61,851 nucleotides of DNA from a virus. Each line of letters opens with the position of its first letter. Position 1 is the stretch's first letter. The stretch covers positions 1 to 61,851 of the IMG/VR virus record IMGVR_UViG_3300033182_001489, one strand, 5' to 3'. A model generated the notes under the pieces. It was not told the origin of the DNA. It saw only the letters and a program-made list of their open reading frames with translations, and made no database searches. Shown in pieces: positions 12,206-58,139 of the stretch. Made by a program: the position numbers and the translations under genes.

Positions 12206-15200
12206 TTACCTCGCTCCGCCAGTTAATAAATTTATCACATCATTCATTGCTGCAGAGATCCTGTAGCCAAGCGTTGTCTCCAAACTTGACTCCATAGCTT
12301 TTTTGAAATCTGCCAAAGGAGTCTCAACACCTTTTCTTAACTGTTCGTTATCGGCAACAACTTGAACTATTCCAGAAGTATCTAAGTTAAGATCAAACTT
12401 GTGAGTTACGGAAGTTGCATTTTGAACAGCTTCATTTAGCGCCTTTACTGCTGCATCAAGTTTTTCTACATCAATATTAACAGTTGGCATATCCTCAGGA
12501 GCTTGCAATTGCAAAGAGAAGTCATCTGGCATAGCAAGCCTTAATTCTTCCGAAGTAGGAGGTGACAATCTTATCTCAGACAAAGATGCCATACTAGTCT
12601 CCAACCTACTTATAGCGGTATTAAAATTGTCTACATTAAATTCTACTGCAGGCATTTCTTCAGGAGCTTTTAAGGTAAGCATCTCTTCCAATCCTTCTGG
12701 AATTTGCAACCTTGGTTGGTTTACTTCTTGAGTTTGAATTTCGGCAGAAGAATTATCATTATTTGTTTCAAATACATTTTCAGTATTATTAAATAATGCC
12801 CCTTGCTCATTGAGACCCTGCTCCATCATCATGGGGCCAATTGGGGTTTGCAGAATATCGCTTAAATCTCCAATTTTTCCTATAAAAGAGGTGAACCCTT
12901 CCATTAAAGGAGCTAAGGCAGAAGGTATTGCATCTAAAAATGTTGTATCTACACCCATTGAAGTGGAAGATGGATTTAAGGAATCCATTGCAGCGCTTTG
13001 ATTTCTGAACGTGTCGCTTTCATACCTGTAAAGCTTTTGTTCTGGTTTTCGAGTTAAGAAATCAACTGGAGGACTCTCAAAACTATTATTGAACCTTCGT
13101 ACCTGAGGCTCCAAATCATCTTCATCAACCTTGTATCTTAATTGATCCATATCTGGAATAGAGTCAGGAATTGTATGACCCTCAGGAGGAACAAATTGTT
13201 GTTGGCTAGAAAGGTCTGGGGTTTGAGTTTGAGACCTTAAAAAGTCCTCTATTGCATCACAGCAGTTACCCCTTAATGCAAGCGCCTCTTCTCTTGGAGC
13301 AGTTGCATCTGGTTGATTTATAGCAGTTATTCCATCCTTAATAACTTCAGCTTCTTGCTTAAGTGGGTCTGCTGAAGGAATTTTTGCAGGGTCAAATTCA
13401 AAGTTTTGTAATTGCTTTTGAATAGCTTGGTCCATAAACGTCCCCTCGGGAGCTTTGCCGAGCAATTCGTCAACATTACCTCGATTTACTTGAATTCCCC
13501 TATCCTGAAAATGCTCAAATTTATCTTTAGCCCATGCGTCCCAATCTATTTGTTTGTTAGCCTGCCTAAAATTATCATCTTCCAGAAACCTCTTTTTAGC
13601 TGCAATAATATCTGGATCACCTTGATCATCAATTTTCTGAACATCAAGATCGGTAACACTTCTAGCAAGATTGGTTCTAGCAAAAGAATTTAAATCTATA
13701 CCTCCCATTTCTTTCTGCCGTTCAAATCTTGCATTTGCTACATCCTGAACAAGTTTCTGTCCAGGAGTCATACTAGACTTACTTTGTTCTACAATATCTC
13801 TTTTGACTTCAGGAGAAGAGCTTCTTTGATCAGCTTGTTGGAGCCTCTTCTCTTCAGCAGATCCCTTCCTGCAGCAGTCGAGAAGCTGTTTTAATATATC
13901 AACTGCTGGAGACATTGGATTAGCCTGCTTTAAATCTACCTTCTTTAACAAGTTTTCAAATCCTTCCTCGGGCGAATTAGCCTCCTGTTGCAAATCAAAA
14001 ATCTGCTTAAAACCATCTACAAATTGCTTTTGCCCTTCATTAAAACTTTGTTTTACATTTTTACTAATCTCTTTCCACACTTGAAAGGAATCAATAAATG
14101 GTTTTGTTATATCATCAAAATTTACTCTCTCTGAATCTTCAGTTCTTGAAGCCTTAGTGTCAACAAAATTTCTGACCATTTTATTTAAAGCGCGATCATT
14201 GCTAGGTTGCATCACATCCTTCTTAGGATCATATCTATATTGTATGTCTTCAAAAGCAGAACTAGATTGACTTTGCTGGGATGATGATTTTTGCTGATTA
14301 AAAACTTTCTGAAGAGCCATTATAAGAGGACCAGTTATCAAATTAGTTTGAAGAGCTGTACTCGCAGCATTGGCTGCTCTAGGTATAAAACCTTCGGCAG
14401 CAGTTGAATCATCATAAGGGTCAAACCCGAACTCAGATTTTACGCTTGAAGCATATTTTCTTGCAGTAGCTCCTGAGTCTCTTGGAGGTGCAACAAAATC
14501 CATACCACCCCTACTAAATATTTTCTCCCTTGAATTTACAGTTCTTTTTTCAACCCTTCCAGTAGAAGTTCTTAATTTGGCCATACTAACTTCATTAGGT
14601 CTCAAAGGTGATTTATAGCCAGCCCTATGAGCGGCAAACATCTCATTCATTATTCCCTTCGCACCGCTTTTAGCAGACATTCCTGCAGATTTTTGCGTCG
14701 GCTTAAAACCAGAAGCGCTAGCGCTTCTTTTATTTTTCTCTAAGAATTCTTTTAGCTTTTTAATTCTCAATTCGTCATCACTTAATTTACCATCGCCATC
14801 GGTATCATACTTATCTATATCTTGCTGCTTTTGCTCTTTTTCAATTTTTTCTCTATTTTGATTAAATTGTGAAAAAGCTTGGTTTGCAGCAGTCTGAATT
14901 TCATTGAGTGTAGTTTCAGTCATTATAGCTCCTCCTGCGCCAGCGCCTTCCATAATTTGAGTTTTTCTTGTTATATCAAAAGGACCAGTTCCCTCAAGCC
15001 TTCTTTCGTTAGTTAATTGCTCTTGACTCAAAATAGGATTACCTTGTTCATCTACTTTCATAACATTATCCTGCAGAGTAATTCCCAACCTTGCTGCCGC
15101 AGCTTTTTCTTCTGCAGACAAAGTTTCGATGGTTGGTCGACCAATCATATTAGTCTTTATATTGCAAAGATCAGGATTTTCCCTAAAGCCTCTAGGATCA

Positions 15201-18200
15201 ACATGATCAAATATTATTCTATTTTTTGAATTATGATCTCTTTGCACTGCAGCTTTAAATTGATTAAAATAAGTTGCCCGAGCGCGTGCAAAACCTTCTC
15301 TCAGCTTATTCTTATCACCTTCGTTTTTAATCATTCTTCCCTCAAACTTTCTAGGTCCATATTCAAGGTTCAAGTTATCCAAGTCTTTCATTCTTTTATC
15401 AAAACCTATAAGAGATCTATGTGCTCCAGCTCCAGGAGAAGCATCAATAAATCTCGCTAAACATTCATTATAATCTGCCCTATCAATCAAAGCTGCTGCG
15501 CCTCTTGATATACCAGAAGCTCTTCTTTTTGCTTGTACGATTTTTCTAGCTTCATATTCATCTCTCTTCGCTTGAGCAAGCACGGATTTCTCCTGAGGAG
15601 TAAGTCTTTTGTTATGCTTCATTTTTAACTTAATATAGTTAGGAACTCTACCCTGCGCGGCTCCATAAAGCTCTTCTTTATCGATTTCAGATATAAAAGT
15701 ATTTAACTGTTTTATTATGCCTGGAGGAACTTTATTTTCTATATCGTCAGCATATTTTGATTTAAACATCTCCCTTTCATGTAGTGACATTCCTTTATAT
15801 ATACTCCTGAAATCTGTCGTACTCGCAGACCCTTTAAAACCTACCTGAGCACTTTCTGCAATAGCATGCATAAGTTTATCTATAGGACTTAAAGTGTCAA
15901 ACTGTCCAAGCACTTCAGGCTCTTCACCTTCTTTACTAGCAGTTCTTTGAACAACAAAACTATTGCTCAAGTCGCCAGAAAATGTAGACTTATTTAAATC
16001 TCCAGCAGGAGTACTGCTAGTTAAGGTCAGCAAAGACCCTTCATTTTTAAATAAATTCATTGCCCCTGGAGTAAACTCTCCACCGTATTTACTTGCCCAG
16101 ATTTGTTTCATACGTTGAAACTTAGAATCATTCTTATAAACATATTTACTTCCAGGAGTAGTCGTAGCAATCAATTCATAAATTTTTTGAGGAGTGATTA
16201 CATTCTCTCCCACCTTAGAAACAAACTTTCCATCCTGAGTCATTAAGCCTCTTTTCTTTAAAACGGGAATGATCTCATCTCCCCTGTTTTTAAACAACTG
16301 CTCTCCAGCCTCTTGAGCGTTCTTAACAGGAATGTCTCCAGCAGGCATCTGAACCTTAATATCAGATTCATTGTAATTTTCAAAAAAGTCTTTATAAGTT
16401 GAACCTAAAGACCAATCTGAATTAGATAATTCGTGATAATTTTTTCTATTTACTACTTCTGCAGTCGTGGCATTAGGATTTAATATTTTTCTATGTTTAA
16501 GTTCCGCCAAAACCGCCTGCTTGTATTGGTTAAATGCAACGGACCTGGCTTCTACTCCAGTTTGTGGATTATTACCAATGCCAGCATTCAACCTCAAATC
16601 GTCATATACCTTTTTCTTTTCGTCAACGTCTCTCCATAATTGCCCTTTTTTAAGATTATAATCTTGAGTATATTTTTGAATAAACTTTAAAGGATCGTAT
16701 ATATTTGTTAAAGTTGGCTTTTCTGGAGAAGACTCTCCGTCAAGAAGATTAAAGTCTCCATGAGGACCATCTCCCCTTAATTCTCGCTCAAATGCTTGCC
16801 TAGAACGCTCATTCATATTTTCTTTTATGAATTTATTTCTTTCTGCGTGTTGCTGCTGAAGTCTGGCCTCATCTAGTTCAAAATTTAAATCTTGACTTCC
16901 TACCTCCGCCTCTTCTCCACCAAACATTGCAGTGTCAATTTTAGCAGCTTCCAGCGAATCTAATGAAGTTGCCGCTGTTCTAATTCCATTAAAATAATCC
17001 TTATCATAAGTTTGCCATCTAGTACCTATATTATCAGGCGCCCATGATGGGTCCGAAAGTCCACTATATTGAGCCTCTGGGCTGCTTAAATGCATCTGCA
17101 AGAAATCTGTCAGAGAAAAAGGTCCACCTTCATTAAACAAGCCCGTGCGAATACTGTCCTTAATCATTCCATCGATTTGTTTAAATTTTTCCTGCTTGGC
17201 ATATAGTGCGTTCAAATGTTTCATTGTAGACTTATACTCTGCGCTATCTACGCCACCTTCTTTTTGCTTCAACATATCCCTTTTTGCTTCTAATTCTCTT
17301 CCAGTGAGCTCATCTTCACCGCTTAACCTAAACATTTCTCGAGTTTCAAACAAGTCTTTATACTGAGCTTTGGTTCTTTCTTCTAACGCAGAACCTCTTT
17401 TAATTACAGTTTGATGATACGGGACAGATTGAATTAAAGCAGCTGCAACACTCTGCGCTTCGGAAATTTCTTTTTGTTTTCCTGGTTCAAGCCCTTTTAT
17501 TTTACTTGCTGGAATATTTAAAACATTTGACCAGCTAGATATTGCACCCAAACCTCCTCCAGAAAAATAATCCAACATTCCAGACTCTAAGGAAGCGGTA
17601 TATGGAGACACTCTATGCACCATGTTTTCTTTTAGCATTTTATTAACGTTCTCCTGAATCTTTGGTGCATAAAAATCCTCCCTTTCTCTAAAATCTTTTG
17701 AACCAACCCCTTTAAAAATTTCACTTCTATCTAAAAATCCATCATCATTAAGATCTTGAGTCTGTAAAAGTTGACTAAACATTTCGGGAACGAATGTTCC
17801 TGCATCCGCACCAACTTTTTTGCGCCGAGCAATACTATAACCTTCTTTATCGCTACCCAATAATTTACCCAAATGATTATCTAAACTGAAGTCTGCCCCC
17901 ATATCTCCAATTTCCCTAGCGCTCAACCTGTTATCTTCATTAATGTCATAAAAATTAAATTTATCTCTTAGATTTTTCTTCAAAAAGTCCATGGCGTGAT
18001 CCTCGGCAGATCTTCCAGGCACTGTAATTGGACCAATTTTATAATCTTGATAGGTTTTGAAAATTTCAGAAGTGCCCTCTACCCTAGCACCCTCTGCGCT
18101 TAAATTTTCTCTAGCGAATTTGTCCAACATTTCCTTTCGGCTAGATTGTCTTTGTATTTGATTTAATTTTGCATTTCTGCTTTTAAGAGGTTGGTCGCGC

Positions 18201-21200
18201 CACCACTCCATAGTTTTACCTGATCGAGATAATAAGTTAGTCAGTCGCCCATGAGCTTTATCAATTTCATTTACTGGTATTGACCCCATTGCTAAATTAG
18301 CCCCAACATCTGTTCCAGCCAATTCCATTTGAGCTGTATATTGAAGCATTTCAGGCATACCTGCAACGTCTTTCCATTGATCTCTCGCCTTAGCAATTTT
18401 TTCAGCAACGCTTGTTTCTGCACCCTGCTCTTTTTGCTCTTTAGTAAACCTTGATTTACTAAAATCTTCCCATTTTTCTTCTGTACCCGCTTTTACCGAA
18501 GATCTATTTTTTAACTCAAAAGAGTATTGCTTCATAAAATCTTCCTTGGCTTTTAAAATTTCGCTATGCTGCTCGGGAAGCAACATTTCTTTTGGTACAT
18601 TTGGAATAGTTAGGTATTTAGATTTTAGATCTAGCCACTTCTGATGTTTATCCTTGAGTTCGGGACTCCACTGATCGTCTTCAAACATTATTCCCCTTTG
18701 TAGGTTTAGTTTATTTCGATCAGGAGTTTCTCCAGGATAAAGGTCAGGCATTTGTTGTTTTCTAGACTCTTCAAGAAGTTCGTTTTCAAAAACTCGCTGT
18801 ATTGCAATTTCTTTACCTTCAATTGTATCACTTCCGAAACGTCTACCAACATCATTAAATACTGACTTTTGACCAGAGCTTAAATCATTACTCATGCTAG
18901 AATATAAACCATCTACCTTAGCTTTATACTCCGACTCTGCCTTAGCTCTCACAGCTAAAGCTTTTTTAATTCTTGCTGGTGCAGATAAACCTTTTTTAAT
19001 ATCCGCCCTTTTGACAGAAATTTTTTCTAATTTTTGTTGCAAGCTTTGTTTCTTTAAGTTAAGGTTTTTTCTTTCTTCTGGAGTAACGCCTTGAGATATT
19101 TTTTTATCAATAACCCCAATTTCAGCCTGCGTATTATCAAATTCTTTCATCAAGGGACCAACGTCTTGCTGCTGCACAAAGTCATACATCCGATCTACAT
19201 AAGCATTAATTTCTGCCTCAGACATGTTCAATGATCCAAGCTTTTTATTGTTTAAAAAGTCGTGCCCTAAATGCTCTTTGTTAACTCCTTGTACGATTTT
19301 ATTTAATGAAAAATCAGATATAGCTTTATTTAAATCAAATCCAGCAGAGCTTATTTCTTGGTTCGCGGACTTGACCTTCGTATTTCTTTCGGCTATAAAT
19401 TTACTAAAATCTCCATACCTTTTCGCATCTCTTTCAAACTTTTTTGATTTTTTGTCTTGAGTACGAATCTTTTCTACAGATTCCCTTGAAAGTTCTTGAT
19501 TATCAATTGATTCTTTTCTTTGCATTAAAACCGAAAGGGCGCCAAGCATTCGCCTTCGGTCTTCAGGAATATGCTTGCTTATTTCATCATAATTTTTGTA
19601 TTTAGATTTTCCAAGCTCAGATCTTGACGTTTTTTGGTCATAACCGCTTCTGTACCTATCGGTATCACTAAAACCCTGTAACGTGGGATCCATGTTTTTA
19701 TTATCTTCGTAACCGCTCCTCATAATATCTGCTTCATATTTCTCTATGAGTTTTTCAAGACTTGCCTCGCTATCATAATTTCCAAGGCCTGGTAATGATA
19801 CTGCTCCAAATTCTGGATGAAACATATTTACGCCTTTTGTGTCTGGGTCGTGCTCTACCGTCCAACCATCTTTTTGCTTGCCCCACATTAAACTATTAAC
19901 ACCATCTGTATATCTGATCATTTTCATGGTGTCCCTAGCGTCGCTCACAAAATCCCCATCAAACAAAGGTCTTTTTACGGGCAACTTCCCGCTAGCAAAA
20001 TAATCTTCATAAGCCTTATCTACATCCGCTTCAATTGCAGCTTGCCTCCTTGGCTTCCCATCTGCCTTTAGAGGAATGCCTAATATTTTAGCCATTTCAA
20101 GGGGGTATCCTACTTTTCCGTAATCCAAGGTACCTCTCGACGCAGCGTCTTTCCATTCCTTTTTTGATTGTAAAATCTTATGCTCTTTGCTAAATAGCTT
20201 ACCACGTCGATCTTTAATTAAGCTTGCAACCTTACTTTCGTATTCAATTTGATCTGGCTTTAACTGCCCAAGTCTGACTACATCGTCCACGCTATGACCC
20301 GTAGTTGCCACAAAATCTGTAGAAGAAGCTGTATGCCCTCTTCTTTTATTAACTAAATTAACATTCTCAAGCCCTTTCAAATAATCTTTAGCTTTTTTCG
20401 CTCTTAGATCTTTTATGTCTTTAGTGTTAGGCTTAATGGTTTTAGGTTGGCCAGTCTTGGGGTCAATCCTTGAAATTTCAAAGTTAGGATCTGAAAATGT
20501 ATCCATTATTTGTTTTTGAGTATAGCCCTCTTTACTCATTTTTCTTAAAGTGGCCATATCAAAATGAGTATTTCCTGAGGCATCATATAATGAAACAACA
20601 TCGCTAATCATTCTATTTGCTTCATCAAATGTATAATTTTGCTTAAACACTGGATCATCATCACTAAACCAATTGTCATTTACCTCTCCCAATTGTCTTA
20701 ACTTTTTATTTTCTAAAATCTTAGCATCCATATCTTCTGCAATATCAAGCAGTCCAAGTATATGCTTCATTTGCTCTTCCATGCGTCTTTTATTTTCTTC
20801 TTCAATTGATGCATCGAATAAATCTTTCCCCGCTACATTTATTCTTTTCTTATTACCTTTTTCGTCAATAGTATCGTAACTAAAACCTTTTTGCAACGGC
20901 TCCCCACTTATTAAATCTGCGCCAATTCTGGATTCTTTTTGCTTTTGAGCCATGTAGCTTAGATCCATTATATCCCTCAACTCATCAGCTCTGGTTTTGA
21001 TAAGTTCAAGAATTTGCTTCTGCTGTTCTTTTAATTCTTCGGGACTCTTAGCCCAAGAAACATTACCGCTTGAGTCAAAATCCACATAATCCCCAAGTAC
21101 AGTTCTTGCACCATAAGCTGTTGCACCAATACCTGCGCCGACAAGAGCTCCTACTGGACCACCTATAAGTGCTCCCGCAATTGCCCCTCCAGCCGCATAT

Positions 21201-24200
21201 GAACCCAATCCCAATAGATGTCCTTCTCCGCCAGAATGAGTATCCCTGAAATATTCTCCAGCTATAATGCCTACAGCAGGTGCAGCAGCAATTGCGCCAG
21301 CGGTAGCCCCAGACGCCAAAGAAGCGCCTATTGTAGCTCCTCCAGTTTTTGCAATAGCGGCGGCTAATAAACCTTCTGCCGCCACACCCGTTCCCAAACC
21401 TGTCCATTCTGCACCAGTTGCGCCAAGAAAACCTTTTTCTTGTGAAAAACCTTTGCCATACATTCTCAATAATTCTCTTCCTACTGGATCTTGCGCTGCA
21501 TTAAAAACATTATATTCATTCGAATCAATACCGTTTGAGTTCATCCACTGCAGAGCTTCTTCTTGCGTATCAAATATTTTTGGCTCCCTAATGGATAAGA
21601 CATCTTGATTCTTCATTTCACCAGTTTGCGAATCAAACTCATCTTTTTTAAACGTTGTTGATTGTCCTCCAAGAGCATTTGGGTTATTGAATTTTAAAGT
21701 ATCTGCTGAGACCTCTAATGGATTAAAAGCTGCTCCAGATTCTGATAAAAACATTCTAGGATTATCTTTTTTTTGTATCGCAAATTTGCTTCTACCTGCA
21801 AGGCTTGCGGCATAATCTGCAACTTTCATACCTTTTTCGGTTTGAGCAAAATAAGCTGCGCCAACATTTAGACCTACAGTAGTGCCCATACCTATTCCAG
21901 TTCTTGCTGCAGAGCCTAGCTTTTGCGGCCCCATTTTTAAATTCACTGCGTCATCTAAAACTTGCTGAGCTCGCTTCGTTCTACTTAATGTGGCGTTATC
22001 AATTAAAGCCTTAGCCCTGGTTCTCGCTTCTTCAGTTGTAATTTTTGAAGAAACCTTTTCGGTACTTAATATTCTTTGTCGTTTTTGATCAACCATATCA
22101 TCAATTTGATCAACAGAAGCGTTAGGATTTGCAGCGATCTGCGAAGTTCTAAAATCGTCAAGATATTTGTCTACATCTGTAATTTGTTTGCCAGGAGCTT
22201 CTATAAAAGGTTTTTCGGGCTCAGGCAGAGTCTTCCGAGATCTTGTATGTAATATATCATCCTGGTGCTTATCAAGAATCGGAGTAAGATTAGATTTCGG
22301 CTTAATGTCTTCTGGTTCTACATATGTGCCATCAAGCACCGCGGAGACATTAGATTTTGGCTGAGTCTGAACAAGCTTTCCATCTACGTCCTCAGCATAA
22401 TTATCAGGATCATAAAATGTTGGCTTGTTAACATTTAATTTAATCTCTTCGGCAAGACCCGCAATCCTTTCTTCTTCAGTCGCGTCTGAAAATGAAACTG
22501 AGCTATCTCCTTTTTGAATTGACCGATCCCCCCAATTTAAATTATTCATCATTCTCTGATACGGTCTAGTATCTTTTGCATCAATTCTTTTTGCCCACAT
22601 TAGCTTCTCTCCCTTATTAAGTGGAGCTAGGGGGTCATCTACAGCAGCTATAGAAGCTTTATTTTTCCTTGTTATTTGGGTGCCAGGACCTTCAAAAGCA
22701 AAATAATCCTTAAGTCCAACTTTTGGCATGCCTCCTTTTTTTGTGAACTTATATTCATCTCCAAGTTTTTCTTTACCAGCGAGAGATTGTTCTAAATCTT
22801 TCTCAAATGCAGATTTTGGATTCCTTCTATAGCTATCTGCTAGACTTTCATTTCTTGTAGGAACTAAATTAGCAACTGCGCTTTTCGCGTTATTTACATC
22901 CTGCAATTTAGCATTCTCCATCTGTTCTTTATTTCTACGTTTTAATCTACTTACAAGCTTATCGCTTAAATTAACCACGCCATCTTTCATGGAAAGTAGT
23001 CCAAAACCAGACTTCATTGCTTTGGTAGTTCCTTTAAATAATCCAGTATCAACAACCCAATCGCTTAGAGCTCTTAATCTTTCAGTTAAACTTCTTGACT
23101 GCTTTGCTGGAGAGTCTTCTTCTGGACCATCTATTCCAGGAGGATAATCTGGAGTATCTTCGACAGCCTGCTTGAATACTGGGTCAGTTTCTTCCTTGAT
23201 ATCAGTAGCTTGCTTTACAGCACTCTGCCCATCTCCAGTCGCTTCTCCTTCAGCCACTTCAGTCACAGTACCTTGAGCTTCTCTTAGGGCATCACCAACA
23301 GCATTTGCATCCTCAACAGGATCTGGGGCAGGAGGCCTGCTTGTATTTGCTAAATCGCTACCCAACCGCTCAGTACCCTTAAGTCTTCGATCGGTGAAAC
23401 CTTTTTTCACAACTACATTTCCAGCTTTTGCAGTATCTGGGTCTATAATTCCGCCAGGAGTATTATTATGAACATCTAGCATGTTTGCCATTTGAGTTAA
23501 CTCTTCATCGGTCAATGTTCCTGATAAACCTTTTGCAAGTAAATGTTTAAATAAATCGTTATAAGCCCCTCTTTTAATGCCCATTGATTCCATAAGTAAA
23601 TCCATAGCCCTGGTTTGAGCATCAATATTATCCACGTTTTCTAGAGCGCTTGTAGGATCTAGAGCGTCGGCTAAAACATTTCCAGATGTCTTTAAGTCGC
23701 CACTACTACCGCTTTGCTGGACCTGATCCATAATGTTTCTAATTTTTTCAATAGTTTCATCGGGCGCTTGAATATTCGATAAATCCAACGATCCATCTTT
23801 GAACAATACAGCATTAATATCATTTGCATCTGGAAGAACATTACCCTTCTCAAGAGCGAGTTGTTGAGCCTGAGTATATAATTCATCCGCGGCTGTTATT
23901 TGCCCAATTCTCTTGGCAACATCTGCAGCATTATGTCCCGAACCCAAAAGATTTAGAATCTTTTTAGCTGCATCAGGCTTCTCCATTGGTATTAAACTAT
24001 TTTTAATTGCAAATCCTGAAAATATTTTACCTTCCTGTATTTCACTAAGTAATTGCTCTAATCCAAATTTTTTCTTCACAGGGCTCCCATCAGGATAAAT
24101 CGGATTTAAGTATTTTATAAAATCTCCAATTTTAAAAGACTTTCCATTATCAGCAAGACTATCCAAATAAGGGCCAACAATATTCATACCGACATGCTTT

Positions 24201-27200
24201 TCTACATCAACTAATTTGCTAATCAAATCTGGGCTCAATGTTTGCCCAGCAAGCTTTCCACTAAAACTCTTTTGCAACATTTCTCTCTCGAGATTAACCT
24301 GAAGCATTTGCTTCCAAGCTTCAAGCTGGTCTTCATTGTAGTACTTAAATGAATCGATAATACTCTTCAAGCTATTGTCATGCGCAACCAAAGTTTTCCA
24401 TTGGTCTGGATCCTTCATTACTTGATTAACCACATCTAAAGAGGAGAGGCCTTCCATTCCTCCAGCAGTAACAAGCGATTTAGCTAAATCTTTAAAATGC
24501 GTGCCTAGCAATTTTTGATTGGTCATTTTGAATTTGTAAAACTTATCAGTGTCATTTAGATCTTGATAATACTGATAATTTGCCTTTAAGTTATCAAACA
24601 GGACCTTGGCTCGCTCAGACTCATACTTAGAAGAATTTGGATTAGTCATGATATTTTCATACATAGCTAATTGCTCTTTAAGTCTTTGTTGTAGTAGTTT
24701 TGGATCCGATAAGTCTTCTAAACCCAAGTTTTTCTTTAAAAATTCTGGAGAATCTTCTCGCATATGTTGAAGCAAAAGCCTGCTAGCAAGGTCCTCGCCT
24801 TCATCTTGTAATAATCCAGGAGACTTTATAGAATCAATAAGAAGTTCTTTTGGTGGCAAGGGGTACGATTTTTTGGAATCATATTTAGAAATCATTGCTT
24901 GAGTTTCTTTCCACCGAATCTGCTCATCTAAAGTCATTCCCTCGAGCGCGCTACTCTTAAACTCTGGATTCTCAATCAGTTGATCTAACTTTTGTAAACC
25001 TTCTCCGCTTCTGGAAATTCTAGAAGATATATCTGGGGACTTAACGTCTGAATTCTCCAAGGCTAATACTTCGTCAGAAGTTTTAATATCTAATCGCTTT
25101 GCAAGGTCAGGATCTTCTTTCATTACGCCATACAACCTTCTATCAGCTTCGGACTTATCAATTTCTCCATCCTTAAAAGCTCTAAATATTTCTTTTAATT
25201 CCGCCTGAGATTTAATTTGTTTAGTGACAGTTAATTCATTTGCTGCAGAAGCATTTTTCGAATCCTCAAGGCTTAATGGACCAACTTCTCTAGCATAAGT
25301 TTCAATAATATTATCTGCGTCTATTTTATTTCCCCTCGCATCATATAAAACCATTTCATTAGGCTGCTTGATTTCAGTTTTGTTACCAAACTCATCTACC
25401 TCTAAAATAGGTTTCCCAGTGGCAGCATCAATCACTTCATAAGCTCCCAGTTTTTTAGGAGATGGTTTCATGAAAGCTTTTTGCCCTTTTTGCTTAAGGG
25501 AGTCTAGGTAACCTGAGATTTTTTGCCCTAAAGTCTTGGGTACAGTTTCCGCCCTAGCAGAACCAATTCTATCAAGAGCTGAAGCAGGAGTTACTCCAAT
25601 ATTAACTTTGGCAGGCTCCTCAAAATCAACAGGTTCGACTGATTTTGGCTGACTTACCTGTGCTTGTTGTTTTGCAAGTTTTGCCATTTTTTGCAGTGGA
25701 TGTTCATCTGCTTGCAAGCCCTTTCCTTGAGCAACGTCAGCAAGAGCTCGAGCATTATATTGCCTATTCATTTCCATCTGTACCTGAGCTTCAGTATCCG
25801 TAAATCCAGCAAAATTTGCAGCCCTAGCTTTAATTGTATCCATTAAACCCATTTCTCTGTAAACTGGGTCGTTATAAACAATTCGCTCAGTACCATCTAT
25901 AATTGATCGAGTTCTATTAAGACCCCTATCGATTTCTTCTTGCTGTATTTTGCGAACTCTCTCTGCCTCAATTTGTTTCTGAATTTTTTCCTGCTCTGCT
26001 TTGTATTTCTTTTCTGCAGCTTCCTTCTCTTTCCTAAATTGTTTTTCAGCCTTCTCCTTGGCTTTTTGAGATTTTTGTTCTTCCTTTGCTTTTTGAGCTC
26101 GCTCTCTTGCCTCAGCAATTTCCCGATCTCTTTCAGCTTGCAATCTTTCAAGCTCAGCCTGCTCGGTTTCCCGCCTTTTATTTCGAAGATAAGCGGCGGC
26201 CTGCTGTTTCCTTCTTTGTCTTTCTATAAAATCTCTTGCTTTTTCAGTAGTCCTTTCGAATAAACTTTTTGCTGGAACACTATCATCTTTTGCAGAAGAT
26301 AAAAATTCATCATTTGAAAAAGCATCTACAGCTTTCTGCTGCTCAGCAACATCATCACTATCAAACATTCTTGCAACATTTATTCTCTCCCTGATTCCAG
26401 TACCATACTCCCTAGCTCTTTCACCCATATTTCCAATCAACTCCTTAGCTCCAGAAACTGAAGCCCAGCTTGGTACCCAATTTTCCAAACCTCGCAAATT
26501 CAACATATCTGAAATTTTAAATTTAGGCATTTTTATTTTGAAGCCCCTGCCTTTTTTCTTTTGTTTTGCATCAAACGCGGCATCAGACTCGGCTTTAGCT
26601 TTTGCCTGCGCTTCAAGCTGGAGGTCTTTTTCGGTCATAATTTCTTTTGGTCCGAAAGTATCAAGATGCATCAGTCCCTTATTGCCCTGATTATAATCAA
26701 GCGTGCGGATTTTTTCTGTAGCTACTAAACCTTCTTCGGTCATTTCGGCAGGCAAAAGTGCATCGAAACCAAATTGTACTCGACTACCTAATCCCCCCTG
26801 CAATTGAGCCCTTGCAGCAGCGCCAGTATCCAGAAGCCTAGGTGCAACATCTTCCATTATGCGTTCACCACCATCACCAACAACATCACTAAAATGAAGA
26901 CCATAAATTCTGAATCTATCAGTCAGAATTTTATTCATCTCTAAGGCAGCAGTATCGTCTCTTGATAAAAATGCCCTTAACTTATCTCCCTTCTTGGTTC
27001 CTACTTCATTAAGCCTGTCGATAATTTGTTGTTTATATGAATTAATTTTTTCAACCCTTCTATTGGTCTGCCCACCAGAACCCTCTTTTAAAGGATTTTT
27101 TTCAATTTCATCCATTGCAAACGTTAGGTCGTCCACTATTTTTCTAAAACTTGAAACCGCAGAATCTCCTTTAGCAAAATTTGGTACAAAAGCTGCCGCG

Positions 27201-30200
27201 CGACCAACAGAATCCATTCCAAAATTTAAAGAAGATTTTTTTGCTATAGTCTCAATACCCTTTGTGCCAAAAGCTTTATCTTTTGGAGTCACTCCGTGAA
27301 TCGATCTAATTTTTGAAATATAACTTTGAGGCGATACAGCACCTTCATCTAATTTATTTGTTACAACAGCTCCTTGATACTTTACTCCATTAAAACTATC
27401 GTTTTGTTTTGGAATAGTTAATTGAATTTCATTCAAAGGATTAGCAATCCCTTTACCTTCTAAAGCCTTTACCTCTCTAAATATTGCAGAGGTTGCTCCA
27501 GGATAAAATCCAGCAACTCTTAGAGCTGCGCCGCCAGTAAAAGTCTTACCTTCGTATTGAGAAAAACCTCTGCTTTGCAGATAGCCGTCGCCAGCAGTTG
27601 CCTGCAATATGCCTCCAACTGATTGCCTTGCAGATTGAATAGTACTGATTTGTGTAGAAGGATTTAGAAGCTGATTCCTCAAACGGTCTTCGGAAGCAAA
27701 ATTAGGAACAAATCCGCCAGCAGCAGTAGACCCTGCGCGACTACCATTTGTGTTTATTGCAACAGATCCAGCATTAACATTTGTAGAGCCTGAAGCGCTC
27801 ACCGTTAAACCTTTGGTTACAATACTTTGAGCTTTTTCTTTATTGTCTTTTGTTTTGGCTTCGCTTTTCTTCCGCTCTTCTTTTTTGACCTCATCTTTGC
27901 CTTTAAGCGCGCTTAATTGATCTAGTATTGCTGGAAGAGATTCAAATTTAGACAAACTAATTTTCATGTCTGAAATATTTTGATCAATAGAAATCAAGTG
28001 TTTTAATTCTACAGGTTCTTTACTTAATTCATCTGCAATCGCATTTAAAGAATCAAATCCTAAAGTGTCAAGATTTATACCCAAATCTTCTAGATCAATT
28101 CCCAATTCTTTAGCAGTACTCTCAATTGTATCCCTTTGAAGTAGTTCGGGATCCATAGAGGTCTTTAGCATTTCGGCTTCTTGCCTCTGCAAACCTTTAA
28201 TCATATAAGCCATCATATCCTTTTGGCCCTTAGAGTAGTCTTCTTGCACTAGAGCATTCTGCATAACTGCGATTAAGTCCTGCAAGTTGGGACCTCCTTG
28301 ACCATTTTGAACACTAGCGAGAAAGCTCTTATCGACCCCATCCTTGTCCTCCATTTTTACCCCCATGCCCATCAAAATTCTTTGCACATTACCTATTGCC
28401 TGAGCGGTGCCAGCCTCTTGCCGCATTTGCCTGGAAATCTGATCTTCACCAAAAAGAGGTTGCAAAATATTTAACATATCAGTAGTAGTTCTTGCTTGAA
28501 TATCCTTATCTAGGGAAGTTCGTGGCTCAAACTTACTTGCAAACCCAAAGTCTTGAAATATCTTCCCCTCTCTATCCATGTTCAATTGACTATTTCTTAA
28601 TGCAATCCTAGAGGCCATAGTTTCCTGGCGTTGAGCAATTTTATTCTGCATCTTTAATAACTCTATCTGATTACTTGACTTTTGATTTAATTGTACTACG
28701 CTATCCAGCAACTCCTGCTCTTCTTTTGTCCTATTCTCGGGAGCGTTATTAGCAATTGAATCAATAATTTGATCTGCAAAAAATCTAGGGTCAGAATCAT
28801 CAAACTTACTACCAGAGTTATACATATTTGACAAAATCTCTCCCATCGCTCCAGAGAAAACAGAACCATCCTTACCCTCAACCTCATCAATATTCATACT
28901 CTTAGCAAACTCTCTAACAAATTCAGTCACCTCAAATTCGGTTGCCGCAGCAGTTTGGGAGTTGATTCGAGCAATATCAAAATTCATTTTTTCATTATCT
29001 GCCTCTGCAGCGGTAATAACATTCAAGCCTTTAAGTATGCTTAATTCTGATTCAAGTTGTTTTTCTGCTATATTAAATGCTCGATCAATATTTTTATTGA
29101 GCTCTGCAACGCTTCTTGAGGTTGCTCTTGCAAGATTGACAATCGCTGATTTTAAATTGCCTAGAGATTTTGTAGTTTCCCCAACGGCCTCTGCGGCCTC
29201 TAGAGATTGTTTCCTTAACCTTGCCTGCTCCAATATTCCTTGCGTATAATCAACAACTACGTCATCAGGAACATTTTCTATAATACTTTGAAAACCTTTT
29301 CGAGATTCTTCATCTAAAGTTGCTGCATATTTTCTTAATGTATCTTTAATATCTCTAGGGGAATCCTTTAAATAATCAATTTCATTTGTAATTGTATTTA
29401 CTAAGTTATCAACTTGATCTTCTGCCAAATCTAAAGAACGAACAGTATCATTGCCAGCAATTTTAGCTTTTCTCTTGCCCTCTTCACCCATTTCTCCCTT
29501 AAAATCTTCTCCAAAAGGGTTCGGAATTCTAGAAGGTCCAAAAGGAATACTACCAACACTACCTCTATCTTCTTCTAACTTTGTAAGATCAAGCTGCACC
29601 TTATCTAGAGAGTTTAATTTTTGAGCTCTTTCTGAGAATCTCTCAAGCGAGTCAGACATTTTTTCAATATCTCCATTTGCCGCAACTAAATCATCTCTTA
29701 ATTCTTGAGCCGCGGAAGAGCCTTGGGGAAAATCTTCTATTTGCTTTTGCAGCAGTTCTATTGATTTTTGCACAGCGCTAACATTGCCGTTTTCCAGTGC
29801 ATTGTTTAATCTTGTTTGAGCTTGGATAACTCCAGAAGCACTATCAATAACCTTTTGATTATAATTAATGTTTTCTTCTAAAATTTTACCATGAGCTTGC
29901 AAGCTTTTTGAGTAATGATCTAAAGTACCATTTGTTGCACCAACTGCAGCAGCAAGAGCGATCCACCTTTTCTTATTAGTAATCATTGAGGTAATCGCAG
30001 CGATCTGCGTAGCGTCTTGCAGTCCATCTGCAAGGTAACCACTAGCTTCTCCAGTTGACCCCTCGAAGCCGCCTAAAAGCATAGGAGCAAACATAATGCT
30101 ATTTTGAAACATTCCTCCTCCACTGCTTGGAACATCAATGCCCTTACCAGCCTTCGAACCCCCTCTTCCAAAAACTTTACTTATACCCCTACCAATTGCG

Positions 30201-33200
30201 CCGCCGACAAAATTGGGAACATAGCCATTAGCCATTAACCCGTGAAATTCTGGATTTTTGCCCTGAGCAACTGCTCTATTTATTCCTTGATCTATACCAG
30301 CGGGTTCATCATAAGTATTAATTACGCCCAAACCTGCTGGATTATGCTCATTAATTAAGCGATTGCTTTGGGCAACTCTAATTTTTGAAAATGGTATTCC
30401 CGCCTGATGTTCTCTTTGTATAGCCTTACCTAATGCGTCAGTAGTTTTTTTAGATGCTGCTTTTTTATTTATTTCATAATTTGGAACAAAGCCTCCGTAC
30501 ATATTCTCATCGAAATACTGCTTTTCTTGCGCGCCCGAACGAACTCCAGGATAAACAGGAATGCTTTGATGCTCCTGAGTGCTTATATTTTTTTCCTGAT
30601 CTTTGCCTGCTTTTTTTGTAATTTTTCCCCTAATAGAATTAGCGGCAGCAGCTCCAGCAAATCTTTGCAAAGTTGCATCCTTATTCTTTTTTGCTAAATC
30701 TTTATCATATCTATTAAAATCATCTTTATCCTTTGCCACTTGGCCAGACAGCATTCCTTGGTAATCTAATTCTTTTAAAATTTTATCAGCCATGCTAATT
30801 TTAATATCACCAGATTCAGCATTAGCTTTAAAATCCCCCACAAATCCATGGGCAGGAGGCCATGCAAAAAACTTTCTTAATTGCTCAGAAGGTCCTCGTA
30901 CATCAAAATCCCCACCGCCTGCGTTCACAGGAACATTGCCAAAAGCTGTATTTGCTGCAGCCTCAAAAGCATTTCCAGCCATTGCAGTAATAGAGCCCTT
31001 ATTGAAACTTTTTTCAACTTGTCGATTAATTACAGAGGGTGAAGACATGCGAATCTCTGATTCTCCAAAAGCTTTAATAAAATTTTCGGCATGTCCGAAT
31101 ACCACAGTTTTAACATCTCGCTCTACAGAATCAGCAATTTTTGCAATATCATCTACAGTTCCAGGTAAACCAGGATTTATACCTTTTGTATTCCAACCAA
31201 CCTTAAATTGGCTTTGATATTTTTTAGCATACGGTCCAGAACCCCTTACTGTTGCATCGGTTTTGCTGCCACTATTTCTCTGAGGAAATAAAAGTGAATA
31301 AGCAAAAGTCGTAAAAGGAGTCAGGTCAATAATATTATCTTTATCTTTTTGATAAGGTTTATCTTTCTGCCTACCAGCCTTCCCGCCCGCTCCAGCAAAA
31401 TTAGGAATAAATCCATCATTAAAAATTTGCATAACCTCATGTTCGCGAGAGCTGATTTGTTGTGTTTTGTTTTGATTCCATCCAATATCAGACTGAGGAA
31501 CAATTGACTGCATAGATTTGTCGTAAAAATCATACTCTTTTCTGCCATACTTTATTCTATTAAACTGCATAAGGGCAGGATCATTCCTTCTTCCACTGAC
31601 ATTTAAAAACAATCCTCCGACTTGCTCAGCCCATTTTTGTATTTGGCCTGAAGCCATGGCTTTTTTAAATTTTTCTACCTCAGGATATATACCTTTTTTT
31701 GGATTAGCTCCTCGATTTAATAACTTAAGAATCTTCTTTTTATTAAATACGTTTTTCTCTGGAACCTGAGTAGAAAGTATGTTATCTTTTGCAGGTTTAT
31801 TTAATCCTCCTCCAGCAAATTCTTTAGCTATTGTTTGTGAGGTACTGAATGATGTAGCTCCAGAAGGCGCAACGTTGTCTAGCTCTCCAATGTCTCTGCG
31901 TCCAGAAAGCGGTCCACTAACATGAGACTTTACAAAATTTTGAATAATATTAATTACATCTTGAGGAGTTTTAGCTCCTTTAAAGCTTGGCATGTTTCTG
32001 CCAATATTAGGCCTATCTATAGTTGGATTCTTTTGTCCCCTATACAGAGTTAAATTTGCATAATTTGGTACAATACCTTCGCTTATATTTTCAAGCTGTC
32101 GAACCTCAAATGGATTTATATCATATCCATAACCCTTTGACAAATCAGGGAAATCTGCCTTGAGTTTTTCTTGTACGTATTTACTTAAAGATCTAAATTC
32201 CCTTGAATTAAAAAACTGCCTAAAGTCTTCTTTTTGTTGTTTTGTTGTTGCTCTAAACAAACCATCTGCCCTAGATGCAGACTTCAATCGTGTATTTATT
32301 ACCCCACCCCTAGCTCCCATAGACATAAGGTTAAACTCTGAAAGAGCTCTGCTAATTTCGGCAAATTCTTCGTTGGAATAATTTTTTATTTTTGATTTTC
32401 TTAATGTATTAGGAGAATACTTTCTAAAAATTGCGAAATTAGGAAGTGCTCCATATGCCATCTGAGGAGGAGAAGGTTCCGCCATTGGAGTGGTTCCACT
32501 CGCAAATGAATTAATCATACTTGCAAATTCTCTAGCCCTTTCCTTTCCAACTGTCGTATCCCTTGGGGGTAGAACCATGCCCCCATCAGGAGCGGATGGC
32601 AAATTAAAAGCTCTCTGAACATCTTTGCCAGTTTCAAAAAACTTTTCTTTATTGTTTACAACAACTTTTCTTTTTTGCCCTTTAATTTCTAAATTTTTAA
32701 CAGAAGTATCTTCGTAACCCACGGGCTCGTTATATAAACTTGAAGCATTGGAAGCTTCAGCCATTCTTTCATTTAAAAAATTGTAATTAGGAACATATCC
32801 TCCATATAAAATCTTAACGCTTTGAGGGGATTGCTTATGAAGCTTTCGTAATGATTTTAACTCTTCTGCATTATAACCTTTTTTAATTAACAAATCTAAA
32901 TCTGATTTATATTCAATAGGGTTTTTAATATAGCTTTCAAGAAACATTTTATCATAAATTGTTTTTGATTTTATTGTTTTTATTTTTGATTTTTGTTTCT
33001 TAAGTATGTTTTGCGCGGCAGCCCTCTCACCTCGAGTTCCGCCTCTTTTTGCCAACTCTTGTATAGCTCGGACGTTTACAAAATTAGGAATAAATCCTTC
33101 TGAAAAACCCATGGCGCCCTGAGACCTTTTCCACTCATTCACCAAATCATTCATTTTATCTTGCTTGATAAACAACTTACTTTCAGCATCCGTTATATTA

Positions 33201-36200
33201 ATACTCATTCTTTCATCCCCAGGCATAGGTCTTGGACTTGTTATTCCAGTTCCATAAAAACCTCTTATTGTACTCTTGCTCGCGTTACCAGATTTTATTT
33301 TGTCGTAATCATCCCAATAGCTTTTCTTGTAAGAACCAGCGTCTTTATTAACTACATCTCTTAACTTATTTAGTTGGTACGGCGGCAACTTTTTATTTGC
33401 CTCAATCCATTTAATGAAGGCTTGCATTTCTGAAGATTTTCCAGAAAATTTCGTATACCAATCCTTGCCACCTTCAGGTTTATACCTAAAATCTCTCTTT
33501 GCATTAAGACCTCGCTGAAATTTTCCATAGTTAGGGATCATCCCTGCGGCCATTTTGTCAATCATATTAAAAATTTTGCCATCAGATTTTGCAGAAGTTA
33601 CTCGAGTTGTAAGATCGGTAATTAAAAATCTATTTCCCAATTCGTTTGAACCTAAGATTTGTCGAAATTCTTTTCTGTCCATTTGGTTTACGTGATTTCT
33701 TAAATCACTCAAATCCTTAAATTTATATTGCTGCATTGATGACTCATTTATTAACCTACCCGAAGTTATCATATCTTCTTGCATTCTGTATTTTAATTGA
33801 GGGTAAGCATAAACTAAATCTTGAAAATTTGTTTGAGAACCCTGCATAAAAGCTCTTTGTTGCTTTATAGTGTCTGAAGTATACTCGCCGCCTTGTTTCA
33901 TAAACTTCGATTGTCTGGCTGCTGAAAATATTTTAAACGCATCACCTTTTGAAAAAGATTGCATCCATTCGATATTCCTAGTATTCGGACCTGTCTTAGC
34001 GTAAGTCATGGACGAAAAACCTTCAGAATCTTCAAGCCTTCTAGTTTTTAAGCCATTCATTATTCCATTATTAACGTCTCTTATTTTAAAATTCGGAATA
34101 AAACCATCGGCAAAACCTCTTTTTCTTCCTGGAGTTGCTTTTGTTTTTTGATCTGATAGTTTCTTATCTATAAATTTTTGCCCACCTCGATCCTTAATTA
34201 ATTTTGAAGCAAAACTTCCTATATTCTTATTATTTGTAGAATTTTTTGCATCGAATTTTTTACCGACAGAACCTTCCAGCCCAAACACATCCCCAGCTAA
34301 TCTTTGACTAATTGACGGAAAGTCCCATCTATCAGTTCCACCTTTTTGTTTTTGTACGGCGCCTTGTATGTAATTTAAAGTAGCCTCAAATAGTCTTCCT
34401 GAAACTTGGGGAGCGGCAGATTTATCAAGATAATCGCTAAGCGGGCCTGCTGGAGATATTTTCTTTTTTCCTCCAAGAACTCTTTGTCCAATATTTTTAA
34501 GTGCTACTCGAGTTTCCTGATCAACAATTTCATCAAAAGATCCAGATTTACCTTCAATTTTACCAACTGCAACTCCTGACAATGAAATTTTCTTACCCTT
34601 CATGCCCTTGGGAATACCCGAAGGAAAAACATACCTTGCAGGTACATCAAATTTTTCAGAACTTGAAGAGCTTCCTTTTTGAGGCAAAAGAACTCCAGCT
34701 CCGCCAGCCCGAAGGTTAATAGAGCCTTTTGCATAATTTGGAAGATAACCCATTCCAGCAACCCCCTCTATTCCTGTTTGCGCAGCAGAGCCAACTCTTT
34801 CAGCGCCGATTGGAGCGCCAAATCGACTCACCATATCTCTATTCAAAATTGCAGAAGCGCCAGTTCCCATGAAATTTTTAACCATTAATTCGTCAGTATT
34901 CGCAACGACATTTTGCTTTTTAGTTTTTGAAGATTGAAAATTCTCAATTAATACTGGTTCTGCGCTTTTTCGGGCACCACCTACTCCACGCTTAATACTC
35001 TTTTCCTCTTTATTAAAAGCGGGAATGTATCCTTTTGCAAGACCAAGGTCAGCTTTCCCCTTCGCACTTCTTGCACCTCTTCCCGCGGGCACAAAAGCGC
35101 CCATAGGACTAACGGCAATATTCGCTAACGCAGACGACGCAGCGATTTTTTTTAAGAGCGCGTCTTGCGCGATTCGTTCCGTCGTTTGCCTTTTCATGAC
35201 AGCGAGTATTTCTTTTTCTTTTTGCGTTTGCGACATGGAGCCGCTTAAAATTTTCTTACGAACGCCTTCTTCGCTCATTAAAATTTGCAGAATTGCTGCT
35301 TGTAGGCCTTCCTGCCTTTTTGTTTCGCTATTGATTGCAAAAATAGATTTTAATGCTCCTACGCCTTGCTTAGCTATAAATGCAAATAATTTAATAAATG
35401 CTCCACCTATTAATATCATTCCTGGCCCACTAATGAATGAACCAATACCTTTTAGTAATGTCTTTCCGATATTAAATCCTTCGCTCTCTCCAAGTAAATT
35501 ATTAATTCCATCAGTAAAGCCTTTTAAAACCCCTAGTATTTTTTCAATTCCAGGCCCAAGAGTTAGCTCGCCTATTGAAGAAGCCATCTCTTTAATTGAA
35601 AGCCCCGTCTGAACAAGCAGGGCAGACATTGTTTTATTTAATTCTTCATTCCTTCGAATAGCTTCATCAGTTGTATTATTAGCCGTACTTAGAGCCTGGC
35701 CATATATACTATATTCATTATTTAAATCTTTAATTAAAGCTTTTAAATTATTAACTTGAAAAACTCCAGCGATCATTTCATCAGTACTCGCTCTTTGGGC
35801 ATCACTTAATTTATCATATACTGCCGCATAGTCTTGCAAAACTGCCATGGAGGATCGAAATGCTCCTGATACGTCCGTAGTGGCAACACCCACTCCTTCT
35901 AAAGCTTCCCTCACACTAGATCGCTGAAGCCTCGTAAATATACTTTTAAATGAGTTTCCTATAACTGCTCCGCCACGAGCCGTTTGCTGTTGAACGCTAG
36001 TTACTGCCGCAAGCAATTCATTAAAACTGACTTTTGCGCCTTGCGCAGTTGCGCCTGCTCGCGCCAAACCGTCAGCAAGATCCTTTGATGATACAGCGAA
36101 GGCAGCGTCAACATTTGCAAGACGATTAACAATATCGGTGGATGTCAATGCGGCATCACTAAAACCATTGATTGCTGCGGTCAGCGAGGCGACAGAATCT

Positions 36201-39523: not shown

Positions 39524-40378
39524 TTAATAAGAAATCCCATTTAAAAGTTTTTCTAGATAATATATATTAGTAATATAAGACTTATAGGTAAAGGTTGCTT
39601 CCAATTCTTCATGTATTGATCCAGTCTGATTATAATCTACAAGCTTAGCCTTTCTTACAAAAAATGTTCTAATCGCATCTCCTGTTGCGCAATCTATAAA
39701 ATTAAAAAGCAGGTCCTGCTCAGTAGGGTTGCAGACAAAATCAAACAGATTTTTAGATTCATAATCGTCAACATGTATCGTAAATTGGCAATCTACTTGT
39801 ATAGGAAACTGAACAATATAATCGTGTGGTTGCAATTTTCCTAAAATGTTAACAACCTCCCTATCTATATTTATTGAAACCTCAAAAGATTGAATCCGAT
39901 TGCTCTCATGCCCCTCAACATTTAATATTATACTGCCAGGGCTTGCGATGATAATAGTGTCATCTCTTTCTTTTTTTCGCGCAGGAGTTGATCCTATATT
40001 GCCTCCTGCATTTCCAAAAGCGAGAATTGAAAAATCTAATGTTGGAATAGTGCCAACTGAGCACGCGCAGCGATAGTTAGTAAGCATTCCATCTGTAAAT
40101 TTAAAATGTTCACCATTATCATAATAGACTTCTCCTAAAATTTTCGTGCTATGAAATAATGAAATTATTGGGTCAGTCGGGGATACCATTAATCTCTCAA
40201 TGTCAAAAGTTGACTGCAGAGATTGCTCAACCACTCCCCCTAGAAATCCGCCGTCAAGCCCTACTGAATTGACATAAGTTTCAGGAGCCTCCCATCCAGC
40301 CGCGCAAGATTGCACACCCCTCAGTCTTTCTCCGTTAATATATACATTTTGAGTATCGTGCAGATGTCTTCCATACAT
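39524..40378 (-). CDS. Tail-tube-like protein 2
   Basis: A 284-residue beta-rich protein. Its C-terminal half aligns by eye with the 426-residue tube protein: IQSFEVSINIDREVVNILG here against IQNFTLDVPLARTALNRIG there, then FVCN against LLCN about 45 residues later. It also shares a final Cys motif. The gene follows a strong terminator (40393-40424) and has a T-run + GTGTATAAT box five bases before the ATG, so it is probably transcribed from its own late promoter. Likely a minor tail-tube or tube-end ring protein. Confidence 0.55.
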   Translation of the reverse strand: MYGRHLHDTQNVYINGERLRGVQSCAAGWEAPETYVNSVGLDGGFLGGVVEQSLQSTFDIERLMVSPTDPIISLFHSTKILGEVYYDNGEHFKFTDGMLTNYRCACSVGTIPTLDFSILAFGNAGGNIGSTPARKKERDDTIIIASPGSIILNVEGHESNRIQSFEVSINIDREVVNILGKLQPHDYIVQFPIQVDCQFTIHVDDYESKNLFDFVCNPTEQDLLFNFIDCATGDAIRTFFVRKAKLVDYNQTGSIHEELEATFTYKSYITNIYYLEKLLNGISY

Positions 40379-50504: not shown

Positions 50505-50525
50505 AAGTTAACTTAAAGTTAACTT
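50505..50525. repeat. Directly repeated 10-bp palindrome (hairpin-forming)
   Basis: AAGTTAACTT occurs at 50505-50514 and again at 50516-50525, one base apart. Each copy is its own reverse complement, so the two can pair as a 10-bp hairpin. It overlaps the end of the DUF115-like gene and precedes the portal promoter. On the minus strand it is followed by TTTT, so it may be a weak terminator or a protein-binding double site. Confidence 0.5.
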
Positions 50526-57956: not shown

Positions 57957-58139
57957 ATGAAAAACAATACAAAACAAGAACAAAGAATTGTACTTCAATG
58001 TGGTCGAGGACGCTGCTGCCCAGAAATTATTAAAAAAGAAAACAACTTTATTATTAAAGACGATTACAATGGAGAAGTAAAATTAAATCAAGAACAAATA
58101 AAACTTCTACAAAAAGCTATATCAGATCTCACGGATTAA
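57957..58139 (+). CDS. Small CGRGRCCPEI protein
   Basis: A 60-residue protein. VLQCGRGRCCPEI (three Cys in nine residues) is followed by IIKDDYNGEVKLNQEQIKLL and a short helix. This pattern is familiar from small conserved phage proteins of unknown function; the Cys cluster could bind metal. Its 3' end overlaps the convergent sialyltransferase gene by 18 bases. Confidence 0.55.
   Translation: MKNNTKQEQRIVLQCGRGRCCPEIIKKENNFIIKDDYNGEVKLNQEQIKLLQKAISDLTD

What the first reader, a model, noticed from the sequence alone, without database searches (positions are those of the whole stretch)
14374..35043. Fourteen G-aromatic-[IV]-P-N-aromatic motifs punctuate the tape measure protein
The motif (GFIPNF, GYVPNY, GMIPNY and so on, usually followed by A or K) occurs at residues 559, 653, 868, 1055, 1204, 1303, 1419, 1544, 1765, 2072, 2161, 2998, 3172 and, as GFIPRA, 7439. 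I saw it in no other protein in the window. Spacing is irregular (89-307 residues in the dense part), and the intervals have unrelated sequences, each resembling a separate small domain. This looks like a linker or processing site between cargo modules rather than a structural repeat. If cleaved, the tape measure would be a polyprotein releasing effectors at infection.
Basis: partly seen in the sequence, partly recalled or inferred. Interest (0 to 1): 0.9.

Follow-up and report, generated by a model that had tools for sequence, protein, structure and literature searches.

The report
Phage tape measure carrying swappable enzymes
The giant protein that sets this virus's tail length also carries a row of exchangeable enzyme-like modules (nucleases and others), separated by a short motif shared by well over a hundred uncultured phage sequences, so the tail probably delivers a changeable set of proteins into the bacterium along with the DNA.

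Summary
The window encodes an 8,166-aa tape measure protein (TMP), minus strand, N-terminus PF10145 (E 6e-27). The motif sits at the listed residues, though only 9 of 14 copies match strictly. The motif starts after about residue 530 and marks a cargo region, usually closed by small 'bookend' domains. Intervals form 107 families: PD-(D/E)XK-like, SNase, GNAT, ART-like, HAD-like, GHKL, P-loop and nucleotidyltransferase modules. Modules are gained, lost and reordered as motif-to-motif units: 70-75% of similarity breakpoints lie within 15 aa of a motif against 19% expected, and 9 family pairs occur in both orders. Codons at the motif vary, so it is kept as protein. Low model confidence at the motifs fits linkers. 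The cargo-module reading is strongly supported. Cleavage is plausible (TMP processing has precedents) but untested, and no dedicated protease was found. I found no description in the literature held, and no cultured phage carries the cargo pieces tested.

The parts
12206..36706 (-). tape measure protein, 8,166 aa
   Evidence: open frame; PF10145 N-terminus
35783..36343 (-). PF10145 domain, residues 122-308
   Evidence: E 5.9e-27
34733..35032 (-). first bookend domain, residues 559-658, between GYIPAF and GYLPNY
   Evidence: 53% identical to L067 interval
34085..34750 (-). module 653-868, PD-(D/E)XK-like
   Evidence: HMM E 2.8e-12, not in training set
33524..34105 (-). module 868-1055, unknown, family shared with L024 and L037
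33077..33544 (-). module 1055-1204, unknown; placed after the ART-like module in L126 and L127
32780..33097 (-). module 1204-1303, unknown
32432..32800 (-). module 1303-1419, unknown, ends in GALPNF
32057..32452 (-). module 1419-1544, unknown
31394..32077 (-). module 1544-1765, ADP-ribosyltransferase-like by motifs
   Evidence: 8 related loci, 56-94% identity; invariant R and STS
30473..31414 (-). module 1765-2072, PD-(D/E)XK-like, member of the commonest module family
   Evidence: invariant E161, D181, K206 in 25 sequences; family of 61 intervals
30206..30493 (-). last bookend domain, residues 2072-2161, both motifs included
   Evidence: conserved in 37 aligned TMPs; pLDDT about 90
27173..27715 (-). 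second cargo island, residues 2998-3178, between GFVPNF and AFVPNF
   Evidence: two related copies in relatives L124 and L129
14372..14392 (-). GFIPRAA at 7439, isolated degenerate copy, doubtful member
21107..21334 (-). hydrophobic glycine- and alanine-rich stretch, residues 5125-5200, possible membrane part
   Evidence: hydropathy
39524..40378 (-). tail tube protein gene, upstream of the TMP gene
   Evidence: Phage_tube_2 E 3.9e-4, below Pfam cut-off

Best explanation
The TMP is a composite: an N-terminal tail-assembly domain, then a cargo region of exchangeable, often enzyme-like modules with the motif at each border, then a long tail-lumen part. The motif is a protein-level junction: it closes each module, stays when modules are swapped, and appears to lie in flexible linkers. 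Most likely mechanism (inferred): the chain is threaded through the tail lumen with its N-terminal side towards the head; the C-terminal part leaves first and opens the envelope; the cargo follows just ahead of the DNA into the cytoplasm, where the modules refold and act on host DNA, nucleotides, proteins or defences. Cutting at or near the motif, in the tail or in the host, would free the modules; I rate cutting itself at about 0.4. Shown: motif, family, borders, module exchange, domain signatures. Inferred: injection, activity, cutting.
For: 397 of 407 motif copies lie in TMP-like ORFs, 42 of 42 N-termini are PF10145, reversed decoy 9 against 92. 70-75% of similarity breakpoints lie within 15 aa of a motif against 19% expected; 42% against 19% when each boundary is counted once. 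Motif-to-motif insertion between near relatives L084 and L098. Window modules reordered in L126 and L127, and about 1,500 aa of extra cargo in L122 and L123. 107 interval families, 9 pairs in both orders. Enzyme families: GNAT, SNase, nucleotidyltransferase-related, GHKL. Invariant nuclease residues. Motifs at pLDDT about 26-56 beside a domain at about 90. Codons vary while the peptide is kept. TMP orientation and release with DNA from phage 80-alpha (PMC11661146).
Against: No experiment. A folded module may not fit a tube about 4 nm wide (PMC9022992), so the cargo must be unfolded or lie elsewhere. Many modules have no recognised relative. No dedicated protease seen. Structure support is thin: one model of moderate quality, one poor.
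Confidence: 0.78

Rival explanations
1. The motif is a proteolytic site: a phage or host protease cuts at or near [AS]xGF[IV]PNFA and releases the modules as separate proteins. This is the stronger form of the best explanation.
For: Very sharp motif with small residues at -2 and +6; kept at protein level through module exchange; linker setting; TMP cutting is known in lambda and T5 (PMC10038345), called common (PMC1796659), and suspected in 80-alpha (PMC11661146).
Against: No S78 or S49 peptidase in 18 related records, none recognised among conserved neighbours; the host protease, if used, would have to be shared by hosts of many phages; no proteomics.
Confidence: 0.4
2. The motif is not cut. 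It is a docking site, for the tail tube wall, a tail-assembly chaperone or a translocation factor, that holds or spaces the unfolded cargo.
For: Hydrophobic and aromatic short motif in flexible stretches; chaperones coat the TMP during assembly (PMC9022992); slight likeness of copies within one TMP at -2, -1 and +2, as if tuned to a partner.
Against: Confined to the cargo region; none before residue 500 and usually none in the long C-terminal part, where a tube or chaperone must also bind. The within-TMP likeness is small and may be ancestry.
Confidence: 0.3
3. The motif is the structural end piece of each domain, a cap or turn that packs on the fold.
For: It closes the bookend domains, where it always occurs, with a short strand there in the model.
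Against: It borders modules of unrelated folds, and model confidence drops at it.
Confidence: 0.12
4. The modules are only spacers that fill or lengthen the tail and have no activity in the host.
For: Tail length follows TMP length in known phages (general knowledge of TMPs).
Against: Catalytic residues are invariant in the nuclease module across 25 diverse sequences; recognisable enzyme families; the cargo region has fewer helix-forming residues than the rest of the chain except the second island.
Confidence: 0.07
5. The motif is kept as a DNA site for recombination between modules, without a role in the protein.
For: Exchange happens at the motif.
Against: Third codon positions differ freely between copies; codon agreement is as expected from codon usage for G and N and slightly above for P.
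Confidence: 0.03

Closest known systems
Polyvalent proteins of phages and conjugative elements (Iyer et al. 2017, PMC5512222)
   Same: Giant multidomain phage proteins with 2-15 different enzyme domains (ARTs, nucleases, peptidases and others), thought to enter the host with DNA, some thought to be processed
   Different: The term 'tape measure' does not occur in that paper; processing there is assigned to zincin-like peptidase domains; no shared border motif was found by the terms searched
Tme, tape-measure-related effector of a Streptomyces contractile injection system (Nagakubo et al. 2024, PMC11126660)
   Same: A TMP relative with an effector nuclease domain, loaded in a tail-like particle
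   Different: One C-terminal endonuclease on a TMP relative in a non-phage particle; here many internal modules between motifs in phage contigs
TMPs with enzyme domains in T5, P1 and TM4 (PMC10038345, PMC9024508, PMC1796659)
   Same: Enzyme domains inside the TMP, cutting of the TMP in T5
   Different: Those are cell-wall hydrolases, one per protein, and not swapped in rows at a motif
MARTX toxins (general knowledge, named only as an analogy)
   Same: One giant delivered protein with several exchangeable effector modules between processing sites
   Different: Different carrier and target; no autoprotease domain was recognised here; no homology claimed

Membership tests
Phage tape measure protein (PF10145 type) | PF10145 N-terminal domain | tested here: met
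   window E 5.9e-27; 42 of 42 relatives
Phage tape measure protein (PF10145 type) | largest gene, near tail tube and tail-assembly genes | tested here: met
   largest ORF; Phage_tube_2 gene upstream, match below cut-off; conserved small genes just upstream in 45 and 39 related loci
Phage tape measure protein (PF10145 type) | sets tail length, present in the virion | not testable with these tools
   needs virions
Polyvalent proteins | several unrelated enzyme domains in one phage protein | tested here: met
   mostly in relatives; in the window itself two nuclease-like and one ART-like module
Polyvalent proteins | zincin-like peptidase or other processing domain | tested here: inconclusive
   HExxH-like stretch by eye in L002 and L060 only; no Pfam match for L002
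Polyvalent proteins | enters the host with DNA | not testable with these tools
   needs infection experiment
PD-(D/E)XK nuclease superfamily (modules 653-868, 1765-2072) | E ... D ... [DE]xK residues | tested here: met
   invariant E161, D181, K206 in 25 sequences
PD-(D/E)XK nuclease superfamily (modules 653-868, 1765-2072) | core fold | tested here: inconclusive
   moderate model; Foldseek and PDB profile search without significant match
ADP-ribosyltransferase, R-S-E type (module 1544-1765) | R, STS and [EQ]xE motifs | tested here: inconclusive
   R150 and S-T-S 215-217 invariant in 9 sequences; the candidate third motif RKEYDF is not invariant; no Pfam match; model too poor

The most novel reading that the evidence does not exclude
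A large group of uncultured phages uses the tail tape measure protein as a polyprotein of first-wave effectors. Modules are loaded in the tail, cut at a shared G[FY][IV]PN[FY]A site and exchanged between phages like cassettes, so tail proteins are a reservoir of unknown anti-host and counter-defence enzymes.
Probability: 0.35. Interest if true: 0.95.

Novelty: new variant of a known kind. Interest (0 to 1): 0.85.

Why it matters
If the modules are delivered and active, phage tails, not only heads, carry exchangeable effector sets, and a seven-residue motif becomes a search key for hundreds of unknown early phage effectors in metagenomes. It also makes the old question of what the tape measure protein does after leaving the tail directly testable.

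Tried and rejected
Window references out of frame failed. PHROGs gave nothing for 10 window proteins. tblastn of window cargo, of a bookend and of the ART-like module in 50,697 phage records: no match; only the N-terminus matches cultured phages, for example the SPbeta TMP at about 29%. PDB profile searches of nuclease, ART-like and bookend alignments gave nothing significant; Foldseek of the nuclease-bookend model gave nothing significant; the ART-like model was too poor to search. PADLOC gave only weak scattered matches. Rejected: DNA recombination site without protein role (codons vary). Contractile tail: no Phage_sheath_1 match in 18 records (sensitivity limited). Text search for the heptapeptide GFIPNFA in 5.39 million papers found none; most subscription papers and preprints are not held, so novelty is not certain.

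Full report
WHAT IS THERE. The finding lies on the minus strand. ORF 12206..36706 encodes 8,166 aa without a stop. Residues 122-308 match PF10145, a tape measure family (E 5.9e-27). Upstream lie a tail-tube-like gene (weak match) and the terminase large subunit. The record is a 61,851-base virus contig, with no host or taxonomy given. Nine strict copies against none in 300 shuffles, and none elsewhere in the window, exclude chance.

HOW WIDESPREAD. Of 407 motif copies in those loci, 397 lie in TMP-like ORFs of at least 300 aa, most of which hold 2-8 copies; the other ten are single copies in short frames. A second spelling, GFVPNYA, gave 92 stretches against 9 for the reversed decoy, and 67 of the 84 new ones lie in ORFs with two or more motifs. 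Among the orderings of the motif's residues, tested in 190,523 aa, the real one has 354 matches and the next 10. The logo is A-[AS]-x-G-[FY]-[IV]-P-N-F-A, with information falling off sharply on both sides. All 42 N-termini tested carry PF10145.

ANATOMY. In 46 N-terminally complete ORFs the first motif lies between residues 531 and 650 and none lies before 500; the last copy is usually followed by several hundred to about two thousand residues without a motif (some loci are truncated). The region often begins with a small conserved domain and ends with another of about 55-85 aa; I call them bookends. The window has both: 559-653 and 2072-2161. Between them lie modules, mostly of about 100-400 aa.

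MODULES ARE CASSETTES. In all-against-all comparison, 70% of alignment starts and 75% of ends in the cargo region fall within 15 aa of a motif, against 19% expected; counting each boundary once, 42% against 19%. L084 and L098 have 95% identical N-termini, yet L084 has an extra module of about 286 aa that begins and ends at motifs. For the window itself, L126 and L127 carry the ART-like module and the 1055-1204 module in the opposite order with the same motif borders, and the close relatives L122 and L123 hold about 1,500 more residues of cargo between otherwise matching stretches. Over the whole set, 344 intervals form 107 families (55 singletons), and 9 family pairs occur in both orders.

WHAT THE MODULES LOOK LIKE. 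Pfam scans of 132 non-redundant intervals, repeated on chosen ones, give GNAT (7e-8), HIGH_NTase1_ass, nucleotidyltransferase-related (6e-8), GHKL ATPase (4e-5), SNase (2e-9) and weak P-loop matches; an SNase-like module also matches thermonuclease chains in the PDB. HAD-like, protein-kinase-like, ParB-like and zincin-like signatures were seen by eye or weakly. The commonest module has invariant E, D and [DE]xK residues typical of PD-(D/E)XK nucleases in 25 sequences, and an HMM of it matches 67 of 305 intervals, in 63 of 105 ORFs (some of these, including window 1765-2072, were in its training set). Window module 653-868, not in training, matches at 2.8e-12. The window's module 1544-1765 has R and STS motifs and a RKEYDF stretch like R-S-E ADP-ribosyltransferases, in eight relatives; this remains a lead because neither Pfam nor structure confirmed it.

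STRUCTURE. A model of window residues 1755-2175 gives the last bookend with pLDDT about 90, the nuclease core at about 60-74, and the three motifs at about 26-56, in coil or at the edge of the domain. That fits linkers. The second model was of low confidence throughout, so low values at its motifs say nothing.

SELECTION LEVEL. Codons of the motif differ from copy to copy; agreement within a gene is as expected from codon usage for G and N and slightly above it for P. The amino acids are what is kept. Variants are a little more alike within one TMP than between TMPs at positions -2, -1 and +2, but not at +1, +5 or +6; ancestry could explain this.

MECHANISM. In phage 80-alpha the TMP N-terminus is at the head side and the C-terminus at the tip, and the TMP probably leaves with the DNA (PMC11661146); tail tubes are about 4 nm wide inside (PMC9022992). 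By analogy the cargo would leave after the C-terminal part and just before the DNA, unfolded, and refold in the host. TMP cutting is known for lambda and T5 (PMC10038345) and described as common (PMC1796659). I therefore think cutting at the motif is a live possibility (about 0.4), but no peptidase of the S78 or S49 families was found in 18 records, and I recognised none among conserved neighbours. A docking role without cutting is nearly as likely.

KNOWN OR NEW. The nearest concepts are polyvalent proteins (PMC5512222), the single-nuclease TMP-related effector Tme of a contractile injection system (PMC11126660), and TMPs with cell-wall hydrolase domains. None of these, as far as read here, describes a row of exchangeable enzyme modules in a TMP with one border motif, and a text search for the heptapeptide found nothing. 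I file it as a new variant of a known kind: injected multidomain phage proteins on a new carrier.

LIMITS. All evidence is sequence-based. Several loci are contig fragments, so counts of motifs per TMP are minima. Related contigs inflate some counts despite deduplication. Because GFIPNFA itself selected the first 120 loci, per-ORF motif counts are biased upwards; the GFVPNYA set with its decoy is the fairer test. The literature library lacks most subscription papers and preprints.

Noticed in passing
L122 and L123 records (G001, G002), loci L225 and L226: The close relatives have even longer open frames over the TMP, 10,441 and 10,566 aa, which would be among the longest phage proteins I know of; how tail length follows from this is unclear.
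   Followed up: partly
window 14764-17980, TMP residues about 6250-6340 and 7300-7315: Short EF-hand-like calcium loops (for example DTDGDGKLSDDEL), Pfam matches weak and below cut-off.
   Followed up: no
window 15065-15301, TMP residues about 7136-7215: An HNH-like stretch (IIFDHVDPRGFRENPDLCN) seen by eye near the C-terminal part of the TMP; no Pfam match.
   Followed up: no
window 55226-55933, 58122-59078, 59100-59480: The virus also encodes a sigma-70-like factor (1.4e-7), a sialyltransferase-family protein (GT29, 1.2e-8) and a small heat-shock protein (HSP20, 1.6e-12).
   Followed up: no
L061, L082, L107, TMPs after the last motif: L061 has a lysozyme-like stretch (KKREGFEARAYSDYGQMSIGYGT), and L082 and L107 have repeated GEYVIRKNAVKKYG-like units near the C-terminus (by eye).
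   Followed up: no
window 50519-51325: MptE-like (6-hydroxymethylpterin diphosphokinase-like) protein next to the terminase gene (E 3.1e-4, below cut-off).
   Followed up: no
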